Below are positions 11,158-22,420 of a stretch of DNA of 64,000 bases, piece after piece. The notes beneath the pieces are model-generated. The model had not been told where the DNA came from. It ran no database searches and worked only from the letters and a program-made list of their open reading frames with translations. Origin of the DNA: a virus; the IMG/VR virus record IMGVR_UViG_3300025759_000062, positions 1 to 64,000 of that record; one strand, 5' to 3'. Numbering within the stretch: the first letter of the stretch is position 1; the number at the start of each line of letters is the position of its first letter. A program made the translations under genes and the position numbers.

Positions 11158-11529
11158 ATGGCATTAGTAAATAAAGTAGATCAAAAGGCTAAAGTAAATC
11201 TTGACACTACAATACAGTATCAGATTGTTACTTACTGCTTCTTTAATCAAGTACAGATCAGCAACTCTGATTTAAAGTGTTTGGCTGAGCTTGCAAAGAG
11301 TGGAGAAGTAGAGCTTACTTTTTTCTGCCTTCACGTGACTGATCTGGGGATTTTTAAAAGTCCTCAGTCAGCACGTAATGCAATTACAAAAGCAAGCAAG
11401 AAAAATCTTGTAATCAAAGACGGTAAAAATAGAAAGAAAATTTTCTTGAATAAAGAAATGAATGTACAAACGTCAGGAACTGTTTTATTAGATTATAAAA
11501 TTTTAGGAGTTGAGACCCAAGAGTCATAA
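11158..11529 (+). CDS. winged-helix-like conserved phage protein, 123 aa
   Basis: Helical with a probable winged helix: ISNSDLKCLAELAKSG, then SPQSARNAITKASKKNLV as the turn and recognition helix, then IKDGKNRKKIFLNKEM as the wing. Its place between endolysin and the HU/IHF gene recurs in crAss-like phages as far as I recall, where the function is unknown. A DNA-binding role is inferred from shape only. It overlaps the HU/IHF gene by 20 bases. Confidence 0.65.
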   Translation: MALVNKVDQKAKVNLDTTIQYQIVTYCFFNQVQISNSDLKCLAELAKSGEVELTFFCLHVTDLGIFKSPQSARNAITKASKKNLVIKDGKNRKKIFLNKEMNVQTSGTVLLDYKILGVETQES

Positions 11530-11878
11530 AGATTTTAAGAAAGGTATTGCTGAAAAGGTAGGTGTACACCCAGAAGTTGTAGATGATTTTATAACTTTTT
11601 ACTTTGGTAAACTTAGAAAGCACCTTTCTAATTTAACTTATCCTAGTATAAACGTAACTGGTTTAGGTACGTTTCACATTAGGAAGAAAATACTCAATAA
11701 GAGTATTAAGAAGAATAAGAGTATGCTTGGTAATCTTGTTAAGAATACGTATGATGGATATGAAAAACATCTAACAGTAGTTGAAAGACTTGAAAGAATG
11801 GAAAACATGAAAGGTATGATTGACAAAGTAGATCAAGAAAGAAGAGAGTTTAAACAGAAAAGAAATGAATCTAAGTAA
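11510..11878 (+). CDS. HU/IHF family DNA-bending protein
   Basis: A histone-like DNA-bending protein, here 122 residues against the usual about 95. The N-terminal helices (HKDFKKGIAEKVGVHPEVV, residues 5-23, then a helix at 25-40) are followed by the beta-arm INVTGLGTFHIRKK at about 46-59, which matches the family's GxGxFxxR signature. A C-terminal basic helical extension of about 50 residues is unusual. HU/IHF subunits near the terminase are characteristic of crAss-like phages and may aid genome condensation, replication or packaging. The start is a TTG at 11510; no ATG precedes the conserved domain. Confidence 0.85.
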   Translation: MRPKSHKDFKKGIAEKVGVHPEVVDDFITFYFGKLRKHLSNLTYPSINVTGLGTFHIRKKILNKSIKKNKSMLGNLVKNTYDGYEKHLTVVERLERMENMKGMIDKVDQERREFKQKRNESK

Positions 11879-13190: not shown

Positions 13191-13441
13191 TGGCAAAATT
13201 AGAATTTACAAAATTAGATAAGATATCAGAAAGACCCGTTACTTATAGAGAGAGTTTAATTACTGTTGAATCTAATTTTATTGAATCATACTATGGATTA
13301 GTATATGAGAATAATACTCCAGACGATGATGTTACAGTATTAGTGACAACTGGAACTGCAGCTTCTTTAACTGGTCCTTATCTTGTTAAAGGTTCTTATA
13401 GTGAAATAAAAGCATTTATTGAAAATACACCTCAACCATGA
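13190..13441 (+). CDS. hypothetical protein, 83 aa
   Basis: Beta-rich small protein (starts MAKLEFTKLDKISERPVTYR) with a TAATGG stop-start overlap with the nuclease gene, so translation is coupled. No motif is recognised. Its end overlaps the following gene by four bases. Confidence 0.6.
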   Translation: MAKLEFTKLDKISERPVTYRESLITVESNFIESYYGLVYENNTPDDDVTVLVTTGTAASLTGPYLVKGSYSEIKAFIENTPQP

Positions 13442-13956
13442 TAGTAAGATTATTTGACGTACAGAATGGTAAAGTTATACCAACTGAACATTGTTATACA
13501 TTAGAATTTTTAAAGGACTTGATGGAAGAATATCCTGATACATACATGAGTATATATCAATATTTATTTTATATGTCTTGTCCTAATCCAGATTTAAACC
13601 CATTTTTTAATTTACCAGAACATGAAAAAGAAGATATTATAGTAGAACAGGTTGGACTAGAAGAATCAACTGAAGATTCTAAAATTAGATATTCATTGGA
13701 CATGTGCAGAAAGCTTTATGAAACTCCAACCTATAGAGCGTATGTGGGTATTAAATCTATGCTTGATAGACTAGCTAGATATATGGAAACCACACAGATT
13801 GAACATGGACGTGATGGAAATATTAATTCTCTTGTAAATGCTGCAGCCAAGTTTGAACAAATTAGAAACTCTTACAAAGGAGCTTTTAGTGATATGAAAG
13901 AAGAACAAGAAAGTCAAGTCCGTGGTGGTGCAGGTTTAGCTTATGATCAAATGTAA
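13438..13956 (+). CDS. conserved phage protein upstream of terminase (possible TerS)
   Basis: 172 residues, mostly helical. After a beta N-terminus (MIVRLFDVQNGKVIP) come several helices, including YMSIYQYLFYMSCPN and the C-terminal SLVNAAAKFEQIRNSYKG, and the protein ends in a Gly-rich tail. Position before the large terminase and a helical, probably oligomerising make-up would suit a small terminase subunit, but no DNA-binding helix-turn-helix is evident, so I call it a possibility only. Confidence 0.55.
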   Translation: MIVRLFDVQNGKVIPTEHCYTLEFLKDLMEEYPDTYMSIYQYLFYMSCPNPDLNPFFNLPEHEKEDIIVEQVGLEESTEDSKIRYSLDMCRKLYETPTYRAYVGIKSMLDRLARYMETTQIEHGRDGNINSLVNAAAKFEQIRNSYKGAFSDMKEEQESQVRGGAGLAYDQM

Positions 13957-14081
13957 TGACTACTAAAAAAGAAAAGTGGGTATTCTGTTATTGGGATGAA
14001 CCCGTTGATTTAAAACCAAATAAAACAAAAAATGAAAACAAGAATAGTTCCCGTAGGGAAAAAGGTTCTAATAAAACCTAA
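13956..14081 (+). CDS. possible small ORF, 41 aa
   Basis: Starts MTTKKEKWVFCYWDEPVDLK with a TAATG overlap after the previous stop and ends out of frame inside the GroES-like gene (50-base overlap). The N-terminal half looks protein-like, while the C-terminal half, inside the overlap, is low-complexity basic. It could be a genuine short gene or a leader that couples translation to the co-chaperonin. Confidence 0.35.
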   Translation: MTTKKEKWVFCYWDEPVDLKPNKTKNENKNSSRREKGSNKT

Positions 14082-14313
14082 AGAAGCACAAAGAACAATA
14101 CCAGGTACTAGTATTATAATTCCAGATTCAGCATTAGAAAAAGTTTATCAAGGTTATGTAATAGCCGTGGGTGCTGAAGTAGAAGAGATCAAGATAGGAA
14201 ATCTTATTCAATATGCTGATTACTGTGTACCAACTGAAATGAAACATGAAGGAGAAGATCATTACTTGATTAATGCAGGTGATGTATTTGCAGTAATTGA
14301 GACTATTGATTAA
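14032..14313 (+). CDS. GroES-like co-chaperonin (Cpn10)
   Basis: The 93 residues follow the Cpn10 fold throughout: VPVGKKVLIKPKEAQ (residues 6-20) matches the family's first strands. PGTSIIIPDSALEK (about 24-37) is the mobile-loop region that binds GroEL, with the hydrophobic triplet III. YQGYVIAVGAEVEEIKIGNLIQY (40-62) matches GEVVAVG...VKVGDxVLF, and YLINAGDVFAVIE (79-91) matches the C-terminal DILAxxE. Phage T4 gp31 is a known co-chaperonin that adapts GroEL for its capsid protein; a similar role in capsid folding is likely here. The ATG overlaps no large gene and the TAA overlaps the terminase ATG. Confidence 0.88.
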   Translation: MKTRIVPVGKKVLIKPKEAQRTIPGTSIIIPDSALEKVYQGYVIAVGAEVEEIKIGNLIQYADYCVPTEMKHEGEDHYLINAGDVFAVIETID

Positions 14314-16502
14314 TGTTTATTGAAATCCCAACATATAAATCCGGAGTATGGACAACCACTTCTTTTGAAACAAGAGAAGACTTCACTGATTTTATATTTT
14401 CTATATTTAAAGAACCGGGATTATATAACTTCAATGAAACAGCTTTTTTGTTTAATCAAGAAGCTAGAAACTTCAACAAAGATGGTTTTTATTGTGGTGC
14501 TCCTTTTAGATCTAGGGATTTTATAAACTACTGGGATGATCAAAAGAATAAATGCCGTGTAGGAGTTATTTACAAAGATAAATCTAATACATGGTTTCTT
14601 ACCAGAGATTATTACATGTGGTTAAACTTTCTTCCAATCTATGATAAAGAAGAGAAGAAGTATGGTTTTGCTAAAGTAAGGGATGCTCAATATCATATGG
14701 CTCTTTATGAGCTATTAGCTGAGCTTAACTATAAGCACTCTGCTATTCTAAAGAAACGTCAGATTGCATCCTCTTACTTTCACATGGGTAAGATTATTAA
14801 TACGTACTGGTTTGAAGAAGGTAGTACGTGTAAAATTGGTGCATCACTAAAAGATTATATAAATGATAAAGGCTCATGGAAGTTCCTAGATGAATATAAG
14901 ACATTTCTTAATGAGCATACTGCCTGGTATAGGCCCAGTAACCCAGAGAAAGTTCTATTGTGGCAACAACAGATTGAGGTGAAAGTTGGCAATAGAAAAA
15001 CATCTAGAGGTCTTAAATCTAAAATACAGGGTGCTTCCTTTGAGAAAAACGCTACAACGGGTGTAGGTGGTCCAACAACTTACTTCTTTCATGAGGAGGC
15101 AGGTATTGCACCTAAGATGATGCAGACCTATGAGTATTTACGTCCTGCAATGTCATCAGGCATGGTTACAACTGGTATGTTCATAGCAGCTGGTTCTGTG
15201 GGTGATCTGGATCAGTGTGAACCTCTTAAGGATATGATACTAAATCCTACAGCAAATGATATATATGCTGTAGAAACTAATTTAATGGATGCTGATGGTA
15301 CAATCAACATGGCTGGTTTGTTTATACCAGAACAATGGTCTATGCCACCACACATTGATAAGTATGGTAATTCACTTATAGAACAAGCATTAGAAGCTAT
15401 TAGATTAGAAAGAAAGAAATGGAAAGCTGATCTTAATCCAGAACAATATCAATTACGTATTTCACAGAAACCAACTAATATTGCTGAAGCTTTTGCTTAT
15501 AGAAAAGAATCTGTTTTTCCACAAGGTATATTATCTAAACAACTTAAGAAGATTGAAGACAAAGAGTATGCATATGAGCATATTGAACTTGAAAGAACGC
15601 AAGCAGGAATAGAAGCAAAGCGTTCACAGAAACTTCCTATATCAGAGTTTCCTGTAAATAAAAAAGCACAGGATAAAACTGGTTGTTTAGTTGTATGGGA
15701 AAGACCTGTAGCTAATCCTGAGTTTGGTGCTTATTATGCTTCTATTGACCCCGTATCAGAAGGTAAGACAACTACATCAGATTCTTTGTGTAGCATATTT
15801 GTTTATAAGAATTCTGTAGAGATTACAAGAGAAACTCCAGCTGGATTAGAGCAGTTTATTGAACCAGCCAAAATTGTAGCTGCCTGGTGTGGTAGATATG
15901 ATGATATCAATAAAACACATGAGCAGTTAGAGTTAATTATAGAATGGTATAATGCTTGGACTCTTGTTGAGAATAACATATCTCTTTTTATACAGCACAT
16001 GATTGCCAAGAAGAAACAAAAATATCTTGTACCTAAACAACAGATTTTGTTTTTAAAAGATCTAGGTAGTAATAGAACCGTATATCAAGAATACGGCTGG
16101 AAGAATACTGGTACTTTATTTAAAAGTCATTTGATATCTTATGCAATTGAGTTCCTTAGAGAAGAGATTGATATAGAAACAGATCAAGATGGTAATGTAT
16201 TAAGTAATACTTTAGGTATTGAAAGAATACCAGATCCTATGCTTCTAAAAGAAATGTTAGCTTATTACCCTGGGTTAAACGTGGATAGATTGGTGGCTTT
16301 CTCTGCTTTGGTAGCTTTTGCCAAAATTCAAGAGTCAAACCGTGGATATTTGAAAAGAAGAGAGTCAGAATCAGATAATTCCTTGGATAATTCAAAAAAT
16401 TTGTATAAATTAAAGTATAGTCCGTTTAAAAATTTAGGCCGGGGTAAAACTAGTATTGGTGGTAAAAAAATTAAAAGGTCTGCCTACAAAAATTTTAGAT
16501 AA
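14313..16502 (+). CDS. terL: terminase large subunit
   Basis: The ATP-driven DNA packaging motor with a nuclease domain, 729 residues. The ATPase half holds KKRQIASSYFHMGK near residue 148 in the place of the Walker A loop, GLKSKIQGASFEKN near 235 and YFFHEEAG near 255 as the Walker B with catalytic Glu. The nuclease half starts at YASIDPVSEG near 475 (first metal-binding Asp of the RNase H fold) and has further acidic positions toward NVDRLVAFSALVAF near 655. The Walker A is not the classical GxxxxGK[ST], as in several large terminase families of Bacteroidota phages. It lies directly before the portal. Confidence 0.93.
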   Translation: MFIEIPTYKSGVWTTTSFETREDFTDFIFSIFKEPGLYNFNETAFLFNQEARNFNKDGFYCGAPFRSRDFINYWDDQKNKCRVGVIYKDKSNTWFLTRDYYMWLNFLPIYDKEEKKYGFAKVRDAQYHMALYELLAELNYKHSAILKKRQIASSYFHMGKIINTYWFEEGSTCKIGASLKDYINDKGSWKFLDEYKTFLNEHTAWYRPSNPEKVLLWQQQIEVKVGNRKTSRGLKSKIQGASFEKNATTGVGGPTTYFFHEEAGIAPKMMQTYEYLRPAMSSGMVTTGMFIAAGSVGDLDQCEPLKDMILNPTANDIYAVETNLMDADGTINMAGLFIPEQWSMPPHIDKYGNSLIEQALEAIRLERKKWKADLNPEQYQLRISQKPTNIAEAFAYRKESVFPQGILSKQLKKIEDKEYAYEHIELERTQAGIEAKRSQKLPISEFPVNKKAQDKTGCLVVWERPVANPEFGAYYASIDPVSEGKTTTSDSLCSIFVYKNSVEITRETPAGLEQFIEPAKIVAAWCGRYDDINKTHEQLELIIEWYNAWTLVENNISLFIQHMIAKKKQKYLVPKQQILFLKDLGSNRTVYQEYGWKNTGTLFKSHLISYAIEFLREEIDIETDQDGNVLSNTLGIERIPDPMLLKEMLAYYPGLNVDRLVAFSALVAFAKIQESNRGYLKRRESESDNSLDNSKNLYKLKYSPFKNLGRGKTSIGGKKIKRSAYKNFR

Positions 16503-16504
16503 GT

Positions 16505-19261
16505 ATGAAGGTATTTAATGCAATGCAATTGAAGAATGGGGCAAAAGCTGAGAGCGGTTATCCTACTACAGCTAGTCTCACACAGCCTATACAATTTTTA
16601 CCTGCCAAAAAGAAGGATGATAACTGGGCGGCTTGGAACTTAGATTGGCTTGAATTGCAAGGTATGCAGTTCTTAAGACAAAATGCACGCAAACTTTTAA
16701 AGAACTATAAGTTAGCTAAAGGTATTATTGACAAGACAGATTATATTGTTGAGGATGATAATGAGTACAAAGATTTAGTTAATGTTCTTACAAAGGAAGA
16801 TGAATCAGCTTTAGAATTAAAGTTTTATCCTATTATTCCAAATGTTGTAAATGTATTAACTGGTGAATTTTCTAAAAGATTTAGCAGAGTACAATTTAGA
16901 GCAGTGGATGATTTATCTTACAATGAAATGCTTGAACAAAAAAGAGCTCTTATTGAAGAGAACTTGCTTGCTGATGCAGAGCAAAAACTTTTGTTTAAGA
17001 TGATTGAAATGGGTGCAGATCCAAATGACCCAGAAATACAACAAAGACTAGCTCCTGAAAGTTTAAAAACCTTACCTGAAATAGAAGACTTCTTCAGTAA
17101 AGATTATAGAAGTTTAGTTGAAGAGTGGGCTACACACCAACTTAATGTAGACACAGAGCGTTTTAAAATGCAAGAATTAGAAGAAAGAGCTTTCCGTGAT
17201 ATGCTTATTACTGATAGAGAGTTCTGGCATTTTAGAATGATGGAGGATGATTATGAACTAGAGTTATGGAATCCTGTATTGACTTTCTATCAGAAGTCAC
17301 CAGATGCAAGATACATTTCTCAGTCTAACTATGCTGGTAAAATAGATCTAATGACAGTTGCTGATGTGATTGATAGATTTGGTTATCTAATGAATCAAAA
17401 GCAATTAGAATCATTACAAGAGATTTATCCTGCTAAATCTGGCAGATATCAAGTATCTGGTTATCAGAATGACGGTGCATACTATGATCCTACTAAATCA
17501 CATGAGTGGAATACAAATGCTCCAAGTTTAGCTTACAGACAATTCACTAGTAATTGGAACAGTGCTCCTGAATATGGGGGTGATATCATCAGTTCTATTC
17601 TTAATGAGGGAGATGATTTACCTAATTGGGGGGAAGGGTCCTTAATGAGAGTTACCACAGTATACTGGAAAACTCAACGTAAAGTTGGACACCTAACAAA
17701 AATCACAGAAGAAGGGGAGGTAATTCAGGAGATTATAGATGAGACATTCAAGGTTACAGAGAAACCTGTGTATGACACAACTATATTTAAAAACAAGACC
17801 AAAGAGAATTTAGTACAAGGTGAGCACATAGATTGGATTTGGATTAATGAAGTATGGGGTGGTGTTAAGATTGGACCAAATCTACCGGCATTCTGGAAAT
17901 CAGATGCCAGCAATAATATCAATCCTATATATTTAGGAATTAATAGAGAAAAACCAGGGAGAATACCTTTCCAATTTAAAGGAGATAGTTCTTTGTATGG
18001 ATGTAAATTACCAATTGAAGGACGTGTATTCTCTGATAGAAATACTAGATCAACATCTTTAGTAGATCTTATGAAAGCTTATCAGGTTGGATATAACATG
18101 GTAAACAATCAGATTGCAGATATATTAGTTGATGAACTTGGTACTGTAATTATGTTTGATCAGAATGCATTACCAAGACACTCTATGGGAGAAGATTGGG
18201 GTAAGGGTAACTATGCTAAAGCATTTGTTGCAATGAAAGATTTCCAGATGCTTCCATTAGATACATCAATTACTAATACAGAGAATGCAACAAACTTCAA
18301 TCATTATCAAACTCTAAACATGGAGCAGACTAATAGATTGATGTCACGTATTCAATTAGCTAATTATTTTAAACAACAAGCATTTGATGCCATTGGTATA
18401 AATCCTCAAAGACTAGGTGCACCTATGGGTAATGAAACTGCAACTGGTATTACACAAGCCCTGAATCAATCATATGCACAAACAGAGATTTACTTCACAC
18501 AACACTCTGATCATTTAATGCCAAGGGTGCATCAGATGCGTACAGACTTATCACAGTACTACTACAGTACAAATCCAAGCGTAAGACTATCTTATATAAG
18601 CTCAGAGGCAGAGAAAGTAAACTTTACTATAAATGGTACTGATCTTTTATTAAGAGACTTTAATGTCTTTGCAACAACTAAAACAAATCACAGAGCTACA
18701 CTTGAGCAGTTGAAACAACTAGCAATTCAAAATAACACATCAGGTGCTAGCATATATGATCTTGGTAATATAATCAAAGCAGATTCTATTGCTGAAGTTT
18801 CAGATATCTTGAAAGATGCAGAAACTAAACAACTGCAACTTAGAGAACAAGAAATGCAACAGCAAAGAGAAATGCAAGAACAACAGCTTCAAGCTAGAGC
18901 TCAAGAAGAACAACTCAAACGTGAGTATGAATCAATGGAGAATGATAAAGAACGTCAAAAAGATGTTGAGGTTGCACAAATCAGATCTGCAGGTTATGGA
19001 GCTATGGTTGATATAAATGAGAACAAACGTTCTGATTATCAAGATGAAATGGAAAACATCAGAAGAGAAAGAAAAGACAGAGAAAAAATGGACTTCCAAA
19101 GAGAACAAGCAGCTGTCAAAAACTCTAATGACCAAGCCAAACTTCAAATTAAAAGAGAAGAATTATCTGCAAGAAGAGAAATAGCAGATAAACAACTTCA
19201 AATAGCTAGAGAAAACAAAAATAGATTTGATGTTAAAGGTGATAATAAATCTGAAAACTAA
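16505..19261 (+). CDS. portal protein
   Basis: 918 residues, in the place and size range of crAss-like portals. Residues 1-770 include the clip, stem and wing regions, with a D/E-rich early part and a Gly-poor helical stem. The last 150 residues (from about 770) are a long Q/E/R/K-rich helix (EQEMQQQREMQEQQLQARAQ), a probable coiled coil, like the long barrel extension of podovirus portals. It forms the dodecameric DNA gate between head and tail. Three bases separate it from terL. Confidence 0.9.
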   Translation: MKVFNAMQLKNGAKAESGYPTTASLTQPIQFLPAKKKDDNWAAWNLDWLELQGMQFLRQNARKLLKNYKLAKGIIDKTDYIVEDDNEYKDLVNVLTKEDESALELKFYPIIPNVVNVLTGEFSKRFSRVQFRAVDDLSYNEMLEQKRALIEENLLADAEQKLLFKMIEMGADPNDPEIQQRLAPESLKTLPEIEDFFSKDYRSLVEEWATHQLNVDTERFKMQELEERAFRDMLITDREFWHFRMMEDDYELELWNPVLTFYQKSPDARYISQSNYAGKIDLMTVADVIDRFGYLMNQKQLESLQEIYPAKSGRYQVSGYQNDGAYYDPTKSHEWNTNAPSLAYRQFTSNWNSAPEYGGDIISSILNEGDDLPNWGEGSLMRVTTVYWKTQRKVGHLTKITEEGEVIQEIIDETFKVTEKPVYDTTIFKNKTKENLVQGEHIDWIWINEVWGGVKIGPNLPAFWKSDASNNINPIYLGINREKPGRIPFQFKGDSSLYGCKLPIEGRVFSDRNTRSTSLVDLMKAYQVGYNMVNNQIADILVDELGTVIMFDQNALPRHSMGEDWGKGNYAKAFVAMKDFQMLPLDTSITNTENATNFNHYQTLNMEQTNRLMSRIQLANYFKQQAFDAIGINPQRLGAPMGNETATGITQALNQSYAQTEIYFTQHSDHLMPRVHQMRTDLSQYYYSTNPSVRLSYISSEAEKVNFTINGTDLLLRDFNVFATTKTNHRATLEQLKQLAIQNNTSGASIYDLGNIIKADSIAEVSDILKDAETKQLQLREQEMQQQREMQEQQLQARAQEEQLKREYESMENDKERQKDVEVAQIRSAGYGAMVDINENKRSDYQDEMENIRRERKDREKMDFQREQAAVKNSNDQAKLQIKREELSARREIADKQLQIARENKNRFDVKGDNKSEN

Positions 19262-20738: not shown

Positions 20739-22355
20739 ATGGCAACTCCTGTATTAAACAATGGAATTTTCCTAAGAGATACTGCCTACAAAGCAAGCTC
20801 TCATATTGATTCTTATCACCTTACCCAGATGCTTGGTTCTGCTGAGCCTATGGATATGGGACCAGTTGATCTTTGGGCTATGACCCAAAAGGTAGAAATG
20901 CCTTTGTATCAAATGGCTTCTTTTGGTGGAAAGAATACAATCTTAGTAGACAACGCACGTGGGGAGTACAAATGGCAAACTCCTATTGCTCAAGATCTAC
21001 CATTCGTGGTGGCTGATATTGAGCCTGCAAATGATGAAAAGGGTATTGATGGTACTACCTTTAAGATCAAGCTTTCTAAGAGAGCATTTGGTCACGGTGA
21101 CATCATTACTTATGACAAGTACAACGGTTTGGAATTGTACGTTACTGCTGATGATATTATCCCAGCTGGTGACGGATTTATCTACACTGTACAGCTTGTA
21201 AACAACAACAGTGCTTCTTCATTGGATAATGCTTACCTAGCATCTGGAACTAAATTCTTTAGAAAAGGTTCTGCACGTGGTGAGTACGGTGAAAGATTCT
21301 CTGACATTGAAACTGGATCTGGTTTCAGAGAGTTCTACAACTTTGTTGGTGGAGCTGAAGCACACGTACACTACTCTGTATCTAGCCGTGCTGATCTTAT
21401 GATCAAAGGTGGTTTGAATGCTGACGGTACTGTACCTGTAACTGAGATCTGGAGAAACTTTGATGAAAGCGGTAACCCATCTGTATCTTCTATTGAAGAA
21501 TTAGTAGCTAGCATGGGTAAAGCTGGAGCTAGAGATGCATTTGAAAGTGGTAAACTTTCTAGAACTTTTGTTACTAATTTGGAAGCTGCTCACTTGAGCA
21601 AGATTGCAAATGACATTGAAACTTACCTCATGTGGGGTAAAGGTGGTAAGGTTAAGCAAGATGGACCAGATGATATTAGATTGTCTGTTGGTCTTTGGTC
21701 ACAGTTGGATAACTCATTCAAGAGAGTATACAACAAATCTGCTTTCTCTCTTGACATGTTCAAATCAGAACTATACAACTTCTACCAAGGTAAAGTTGAG
21801 TTCAAAGGACCGGACCCACAGAGACAACTTGTTGTACAAACTGGTATTGGTGGTATGCAATTAATCAACAAAGCTATTGCTGATGAAGTATACGGATCAG
21901 GTCTTGTACAGAATGCATCTGACATTGGTGCAGTTACTGGTCAGGGAATGGATCTTGACTTTGGTTTTGCTTACACAAGCTTTACTATTCCATTCTTAGC
22001 TAACGTTAAGTTTGTTCTTAACCCAGCGTTTGATAACCTTCACACTAATGATGTTGAGAATCCATTGATTGATGGAAGACCATTGAGCTCTTACAGCTTT
22101 ATCATCTTTGATGTGACTGAGAACGGTAATGATAACATTCACTTGTTGAAGTTGTCATGGGATAACCAATTGAAGTGGTTCTACCAAAATGGTACTATGG
22201 ACTACATGGGAAGAACGCAAGGATTTGCATCTTCTGGTAACTTCAATGGTTACAGAGTATACATGACTCAAACCATGCCAGCTGTATGGGTTAAAGACCC
22301 AACTAAAGTTCTTAAGATTGTAATGAGAAATCCTGTTACAGGAGGATCATTCTAA
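20739..22355 (+). CDS. major capsid protein
   Basis: 538 residues, likely HK97-fold. Begins MATPVLNNGIFLRDTAY, followed by a sequence typical of crAss-like capsid proteins (for example EPMDMGPVDLWAMTQKVE and GGKNTILVDNARGEYKW). Evidence for abundance: codon choice shifts to C-ending codons (AAC, TAC, GAC) compared with neighbours, and a very strong terminator follows. The gene is preceded by the scaffold candidate and an AACAATCAATTATG leader without a Shine-Dalgarno site. Assignment rests on place, size and these signs, not on a diagnostic motif. Confidence 0.88.
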   Translation: MATPVLNNGIFLRDTAYKASSHIDSYHLTQMLGSAEPMDMGPVDLWAMTQKVEMPLYQMASFGGKNTILVDNARGEYKWQTPIAQDLPFVVADIEPANDEKGIDGTTFKIKLSKRAFGHGDIITYDKYNGLELYVTADDIIPAGDGFIYTVQLVNNNSASSLDNAYLASGTKFFRKGSARGEYGERFSDIETGSGFREFYNFVGGAEAHVHYSVSSRADLMIKGGLNADGTVPVTEIWRNFDESGNPSVSSIEELVASMGKAGARDAFESGKLSRTFVTNLEAAHLSKIANDIETYLMWGKGGKVKQDGPDDIRLSVGLWSQLDNSFKRVYNKSAFSLDMFKSELYNFYQGKVEFKGPDPQRQLVVQTGIGGMQLINKAIADEVYGSGLVQNASDIGAVTGQGMDLDFGFAYTSFTIPFLANVKFVLNPAFDNLHTNDVENPLIDGRPLSSYSFIIFDVTENGNDNIHLLKLSWDNQLKWFYQNGTMDYMGRTQGFASSGNFNGYRVYMTQTMPAVWVKDPTKVLKIVMRNPVTGGSF

Positions 22356-22368
22356 GAATTATACTGAT

Positions 22369-22407
22369 AAAAGGGGAGGGGATAAAACTCCTCCCCTTTT
22401 TATTTTT
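22369..22407 (+). terminator. strong terminator after major capsid gene
   Basis: AAAAGGGGAGG (22369-22379) pairs with CCTCCCCTTTT (22390-22400), an 11-bp perfect stem followed by a further T-rich run. Fourteen bases after the stop codon. Confidence 0.93.
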
Positions 22408-22420
22408 TATGATGTTATTT

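What the first reader, a model, noticed from the sequence alone, without database searches (positions are those of the whole stretch)
14032..14313. GroES-like co-chaperonin immediately before the terminase
Seen: full-length Cpn10 pattern with a mobile loop of about 24-37 (PGTSIIIPDSALEK) and hydrophobic III. Known: T4 gp31 and related proteins replace GroES to fold large capsid proteins in GroEL. The 538-residue capsid protein here might have the same need. A phage co-chaperonin in a crAss-like genome at this locus is notable.
Basis: partly seen in the sequence, partly recalled or inferred. Interest (0 to 1): 0.6.

Follow-up and report, generated by a model that had tools for sequence, protein, structure and literature searches.

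The report
Phage-encoded GroES lid before terminase
This crAss-like water phage carries its own GroES-type lid for the bacterial protein-folding chamber, placed directly in front of its DNA-packaging gene; almost every relative keeps it there, but one natural lineage has lost it, which makes its role in building the virus testable.

Summary
ORF 14032-14313 (+), 93 aa, is a genuine Cpn10 (PF00166, 49.1 bits, E 6e-13; AlphaFold2 pLDDT 89; all 27 PDB fold matches with E<=0.001 are Cpn10s). Its stop overlaps the terL start (TAATG). The genome is a 117-kb IMG/VR record with a Crassvirales-type capsid protein and no GroEL. In 129 of 132 distinct relatives with enough sequence, a Cpn10 sits directly upstream of terL, under purifying selection (dN/dS 0.04-0.19). 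All 99 full-length clade sequences have a shortened GroES 'roof' segment: 8-11 residues, against 17 in E. coli and 12 in Bacteroides. T4 gp31 also lacks the roof loops. The mobile loop is kept. Best reading: a lid for host GroEL that helps fold phage head proteins, most plausibly the 59-kDa capsid protein. Against a strict capsid-size need, one derived lineage lost the gene, apparently genome-wide, and still has a 540-residue capsid ORF. The 'notable' claim is softened: crAss001 gp15 and its relatives are already annotated as putative 10-kDa chaperonins near terL, and GroEL or GroES occur in other Bacteroidota phages. New member of a known kind.

The parts
14032..14313 (+). groES-like Cpn10 co-chaperonin gene, 93 aa, 10.3 kDa
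14080..14142 (+). mobile loop (residues 17-37), with the GroEL-binding type hydrophobic triad III at residues 28-30 (14113-14121)
   Evidence: alignment with E. coli GroES and 99 clade members; lower-confidence stretch of the AF2 model, pLDDT 75-77
14173..14196 (+). shortened roof segment (residues 48-55, AEVEEIKI), where E. coli GroES has a 17-residue roof beta-hairpin segment
13956..14081 (+). micro-ORF of 41 aa (MTTKKEKWVFCYWDEP...), overlapping the groES start by 50 nt in another frame; the motif recurs in 53 of 126 distinct relatives
13438..13956 (+). 172-aa protein of unknown function, conserved upstream neighbour in nearly all relatives
14313..16502 (+). terminase large subunit, 729 aa; its ATG overlaps the groES stop (TAATG)
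   Evidence: phrog_6681 E 1.6e-60; sequence
16505..19261 (+). portal protein, 918 aa
   Evidence: phrog_6547 E 4e-95
20739..22355 (+). major capsid protein, 538 aa, 59.4 kDa; the presumed main folding client
   Evidence: PF23898 E 3e-32; mass
22369..22408 (+). strong hairpin followed by a T-run just after the capsid gene, probable intrinsic terminator of the groES-terL-portal-capsid unit
   Evidence: fold z-score -3.5

Best explanation
The gene encodes a phage Cpn10 (GroES-type) co-chaperonin. It most likely forms a seven-membered lid that docks through its mobile loop (III at residues 28-30) on the host's GroEL, since the phage record has no GroEL, and replaces or supplements host GroES during late infection. 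Its short roof segment should leave a more open dome, as in T4 gp31, which would help large or awkward head proteins fold; the 59-kDa capsid protein is the most plausible client. Placement between the 172-aa gene and terL, with TAATG overlap, ties its expression to the packaging and head genes. Shown: family, fold prediction, position, conservation, roof shortening, absence of GroEL in the record. Inferred: heptamer, GroEL docking, timing, client identity.
For: Cpn10 by Pfam, PHROG, NCBIfam and PDB sequence searches; all 44 aligned relatives match Cpn10. AF2 barrel, pLDDT 89.4; Foldseek's 27 matches with E<=0.001 are all Cpn10, many from GroEL complexes. Directly upstream of terL in 129 of 132 distinct relatives with room upstream. 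dN/dS 0.04-0.19; identity co-varies with TerL (r 0.76), so it is inherited with the head module. Roof segment 8-11 residues in all 99 sequences against 17 in E. coli and 12 in Bacteroides; gp31 lacks roof loops and has a larger cage (PMC6318259). No GroEL in the record or in seven long relatives. Capsid protein of 59.4 kDa, against about 56 kDa for T4 gp23.
Against: One lineage (L045, L046, L143-L147) lacks the gene, with no Cpn10 in contigs that together span about 116.8 kb, yet keeps a 540-residue capsid ORF. So the gene is not strictly required for a capsid protein of that size. The capsid protein is far more conserved (median 91% identity) than the Cpn10 (50%). The mobile loop is lengthened by at most one residue relative to E. 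coli, unlike the 22-residue gp31 loop. No binding, oligomer or expression data exist; the host is unknown.
Confidence: 0.72

Rival explanations
1. The co-chaperonin mainly redirects host GroEL: it fits, or competes with host GroES for, the host chaperonin in general, and the capsid protein is not a special client. It would be kept because hosts vary or because GroES is limiting late in infection.
For: Cpn10 diverges much faster (median 50% identity) than the capsid protein (91%) or TerL (79%); loop triads vary (III, LYL, IMI, ILI); a lineage with the same capsid size does without it.
Against: It stays fixed in the head and packaging module in 129 of 132 distinct relatives rather than in an early or host-takeover region. 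Fast divergence could also be weak constraint on a small lid.
Confidence: 0.35
2. The main client is another packaging or head protein (terminase, portal, scaffold or the 172-aa neighbour), reflected in the fixed position next to terL.
For: Invariant adjacency to terL and closeness to the 172-aa gene; TAATG overlap with terL.
Against: TerL (84 kDa) and portal (106 kDa) are well above the substrate size that fits the GroEL cage (own knowledge; about 56 kDa is already slightly too large for GroEL-GroES, PMC6318259). Adjacency in compact phage operons often reflects timing only.
Confidence: 0.2
3. The Cpn10 fold has been reused for another role, such as a virion or scaffold part, and no longer works with GroEL.
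For: Cpn10-like barrels can be recruited elsewhere (own knowledge); the roof is short and four or more relatives have a shortened mobile loop.
Against: The GroEL-binding loop with a hydrophobic triad and IPD-like motif is kept in most members, which is not expected for a structural part.
Confidence: 0.07

Closest known systems
Bacterial GroES / Cpn10 (PF00166), e.g. E. coli GroES and Bacteroides GroES
   Same: Full-profile sequence match, barrel fold, mobile loop of nearly the same length, IIIPDSALEK loop resembling the Bacteroides GGIIIPDTAKEK loop
   Different: Roof segment 8 residues, against 17 (E. coli) and 12 (Bacteroides); one extra loop residue; not paired with groEL; sits in the phage packaging module
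T4 gp31
   Same: Phage co-chaperonin without the roof loops and without a phage GroEL; large capsid protein as the presumed client
   Different: No gp31 among the listed sequence or fold matches; the long gp31 loop (22 residues) is absent; capsid dependence untested
crAss001 gp15 family ('putative 10kDa chaperonin') of Steigviridae
   Same: Crassvirales, near terL and an HU gene, short roof segment; profile-profile probability 97.3%, E 2.7e-11
   Different: About 136 aa with an insert and a C-terminal tail; weak Pfam match (17.7 bits, below cut-off); one or more genes away from terL rather than adjacent
Cellulophaga phage phi4:1 gp096 and Leptolyngbya phage Lbo-JY46 Cpn10
   Same: Phage Cpn10s in genomes with distantly related terminases and large capsid proteins
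   Different: Encoded far from terL, divergent sequence; phi4:1 keeps a longer roof segment
Bacteroides phage DAC16 groES-groEL pair
   Same: Short-roof Cpn10, 33% identical
   Different: A phage GroEL follows it; not listed among records matching this terminase

Membership tests
Cpn10 / GroES family (PF00166) | Sequence profile match above the curated cut-off over the full domain | tested here: met
   49.1 bits against 21.1, profile positions 2-93 of 93; 44 of 44 aligned relatives match
Cpn10 / GroES family (PF00166) | Cpn10 beta-barrel fold | tested here: met
   AF2 pLDDT 89.4 and PDB fold matches to GroES chains, TM up to 0.81
Cpn10 / GroES family (PF00166) | Mobile loop with hydrophobic GroEL-binding tripeptide | tested here: met
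   III at residues 28-30; hydrophobic triads in nearly all of 99 relatives
Cpn10 / GroES family (PF00166) | Roof beta-hairpin of the dome, as in E. coli GroES (variable within the family, so not required for membership) | tested here: not met
   8 residues against 17 in E. coli; Bacteroides GroES has 12
Cpn10 / GroES family (PF00166) | Heptamer that caps GroEL with ATP | not testable with these tools
   No oligomer prediction or binding data available
T4 gp31 type phage co-chaperonin | Roof loops missing | tested here: met
   Short segment in all 99 sequences; gp31 description in PMC6318259
T4 gp31 type phage co-chaperonin | Mobile loop much longer than in GroES (22 against 16 residues) | tested here: not met
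   Loop segment 23-25 residues in the clade against 24 in E. coli, same measure
T4 gp31 type phage co-chaperonin | Required for folding the phage capsid protein | not testable with these tools
   Loss lineage with the same capsid size argues against a strict need
crAss001 gp15 family | Homologous profile over the domain | tested here: inconclusive
   hhalign 97.3%, E 2.7e-11, but the gp15 profile finds the window gene only at E 0.011; related fold, orthology not shown

The most novel reading that the evidence does not exclude
Co-chaperonins are a long-standing part of the Crassvirales head module: a short-roof, open-dome lid that stays with terL and adapts host GroEL to the crAss capsid protein, with divergent forms (gp15) in gut families and lineages that later escaped the need without shrinking the capsid protein.
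Probability: 0.3. Interest if true: 0.55.

Novelty: new member of a known kind. Interest (0 to 1): 0.42.

Why it matters
crAss-like phages are abundant, yet how their capsid proteins fold in the cell is little studied. A fixed, short-roof GroES next to terL in an aquatic clade, together with a natural lineage that lost it while keeping the same-sized capsid protein, gives a direct comparison for asking why phages carry their own folding lids and whether a large capsid protein really needs one.

Tried and rejected
The capsid-protein fold prediction was useless (pLDDT 35, shallow 91%-identical alignment) and is not used. Host search through GTDB contigs gave three hits in Pseudomonadales and Campylobacteraceae MAGs, judged probable misbinning and not taken as host evidence. 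The profile alignment could not be used for the genome-contig scan. The idea that groES had merely moved elsewhere in the loss lineage was tested and not supported. A phage GroEL as partner was not supported for this record and seven long relatives. Near-DNA search of the phage collection gave nothing. Sigma-70-like promoter matches in the region were fewer than in shuffles and are not used.

Full report
WHAT WAS CHECKED. The ORF at 14032-14313 (+) is exactly as described: 93 codons, ATG to TAA, residues 24-37 PGTSIIIPDSALEK. Pfam Cpn10 matches at 49.1 bits, E 6e-13, over profile positions 2-93 of 93. PHROG 3188 (co-chaperonin GroES) matches at E 2.8e-13. NCBIfam lists 14 GroES models, all below their curated cut-offs, as expected for a divergent member. 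PDB sequence matches are all Cpn10 or Cpn20 type. The gene is not a chance ORF.

FOLD. AlphaFold2 on an alignment of 44 clade members gives mean pLDDT 89.4, with lower values (75-77) in the mobile loop. All 27 Foldseek matches in the PDB with E<=0.001 are Cpn10 chains, including GroES from GroEL complexes (1aon, 8wuw, 8wuc).

SURROUNDINGS. The genome is a 117,277-base IMG/VR virus record. The capsid protein matches Crass_capsid PF23898; portal and terminase match their PHROG families. Named relatives by TerL are Crassvirales and Flavobacterium or Cellulophaga phages at only 21-28% identity, so this is a separate clade with no close named record in that collection. The order is 172-aa protein, 41-aa micro-ORF, groES, terL, portal, an acidic protein, capsid protein. 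Two junctions are TAATG overlaps (13954-13958 and 14311-14315). After the capsid gene there is a strong hairpin with a T-run, z-score -3.5. Co-transcription of groES with the head genes is therefore likely but inferred.

CENSUS. TerL searches of IMG/VR gave 138 distinct TerL sequences of this clade. A Cpn10 lies directly upstream in 129; six loci end before it; three, all one lineage, lack it. The gene is under purifying selection (dN/dS 0.04-0.19 in close pairs). Cpn10 identity follows TerL identity (r 0.76), with median identities of 50% for Cpn10, 79% for TerL and 91% for the capsid protein. On the TerL tree the loss lineage is nested among carriers and needs one change. In that lineage an 81-aa ORF, also present near groES in sister lineages, abuts terL. 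Contigs G010 and G013 overlap over 33.7 kb at 96% identity; their union is about 116.8 kb, close to the 115.6-117.8 kb of long relatives. It holds no Cpn10 by Pfam, by the clade profile or by the gp15 profile, and no GroEL by a phage GroEL query. The union size is my arithmetic from the BLAST coordinates; end-to-end closure was not seen. Its capsid ORF is 540 codons.

ROOF AND LOOP. Between the conserved VG and GD, E. coli GroES has 17 residues; the 99 full-length clade sequences have 8 (91 sequences), 9 (7) or 11 (1). Bacteroides GroES has 12 (counted from the sequences). T4 gp31 lacks roof loops, and this, together with longer loops, is believed to give it room for gp23 (PMC6318259). So the shortening is real and clade-wide, and only part of it can be explained by Bacteroidota GroES being short already. 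The mobile loop is not long: 23-25 residues against 24 in E. coli.

KNOWN RELATIVES. crAss001 gp15 is annotated 'putative 10kDa chaperonin' and lies four genes before terL. Homologues are annotated or detectable across Steigviridae, a partial match exists in Cellulophaga phi14:2 (E 1.7e-6), and profile comparison links the two families (97.3%). GroEL occurs in phi14:2, cr111_1, cr108_1 and DAC16. Marine Bacteroidetes phage genomes with GroEL were reported in 2017 (PMC5332604). Of the papers held, the only one with both 'crAss-like' and 'GroES' concerns other phages' DNA polymerase neighbourhoods (PMC11348598); the Crassvirales review does not mention chaperonins (PMC10136315), and the crAss001 structure paper does not mention gp15 (PMC10172136).

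CAPSID SIZE TEST. Capsid ORFs, stop to stop: 541-547 in the long members of this clade whose ORF is intact (472 in one that starts late), 562 in Lbo-JY46 (has Cpn10), 568 aa for the probable phi4:1 capsid protein (has GroES), 500-509 in Steigviridae with unsplit ORFs and a gp15 type, 478-495 where no Cpn10 was found. The loss lineage is the only within-clade test and it does not fit.

CONCLUSION. Family membership is firm. A GroEL lid role is likely. The capsid protein as main client is plausible but unproven, and a strict size need is disfavoured. The finding is a well-conserved new member of a known kind.

Noticed in passing
window 13956-14081: Micro-ORF of 41 aa with a conserved motif (WVFCYWDE and variants) between the 172-aa gene and groES, overlapping the groES start by 50 nt here (50-122 nt in relatives); seen in 53 of 126 distinct relatives. 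No function known.
   Followed up: partly
L045:4447-4689 and L143-L217: A family of about 80-aa ORFs is widespread in viral contigs, most of them without this terminase; it abuts terL in place of groES in the loss lineage, accompanies groES in sister lineages, and lies a few kb from more distant Cpn10 genes in some others.
   Followed up: partly
L108:3989-5888 (MT074137.1 176197-178096): Bacteroides phages of the DAC16 type carry a groES-groEL pair annotated only as hypothetical proteins (PF00166 E 1.6e-21, PF00118 E 3.7e-73).
   Followed up: partly
L131:623-2155, L132:1-9, L136: GroEL genes in the Steigviridae cr111_1 and cr108_1 and in phi14:2, together with a gp15-type Cpn10-like gene, suggest that some crAss-like phages carry a complete chaperonin pair.
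   Followed up: no
L303 (WLWP01000004.1), L304, L305: Contigs of this crAss-like clade lie in MAGs labelled Pseudomonadales and Campylobacteraceae; probable misbinning.
   Followed up: no
window 14010-14031 and relatives: Start codons of groES are preceded by A-rich tracts without a clear Shine-Dalgarno motif, which by my own knowledge is usual in Bacteroidota; weak host hint only.
   Followed up: no
window 11510-11878: Weak HU/IHF-like match (PF00216 E 0.03, below cut-off) upstream, echoing the HU gene next to gp15 in crAss001.
   Followed up: no
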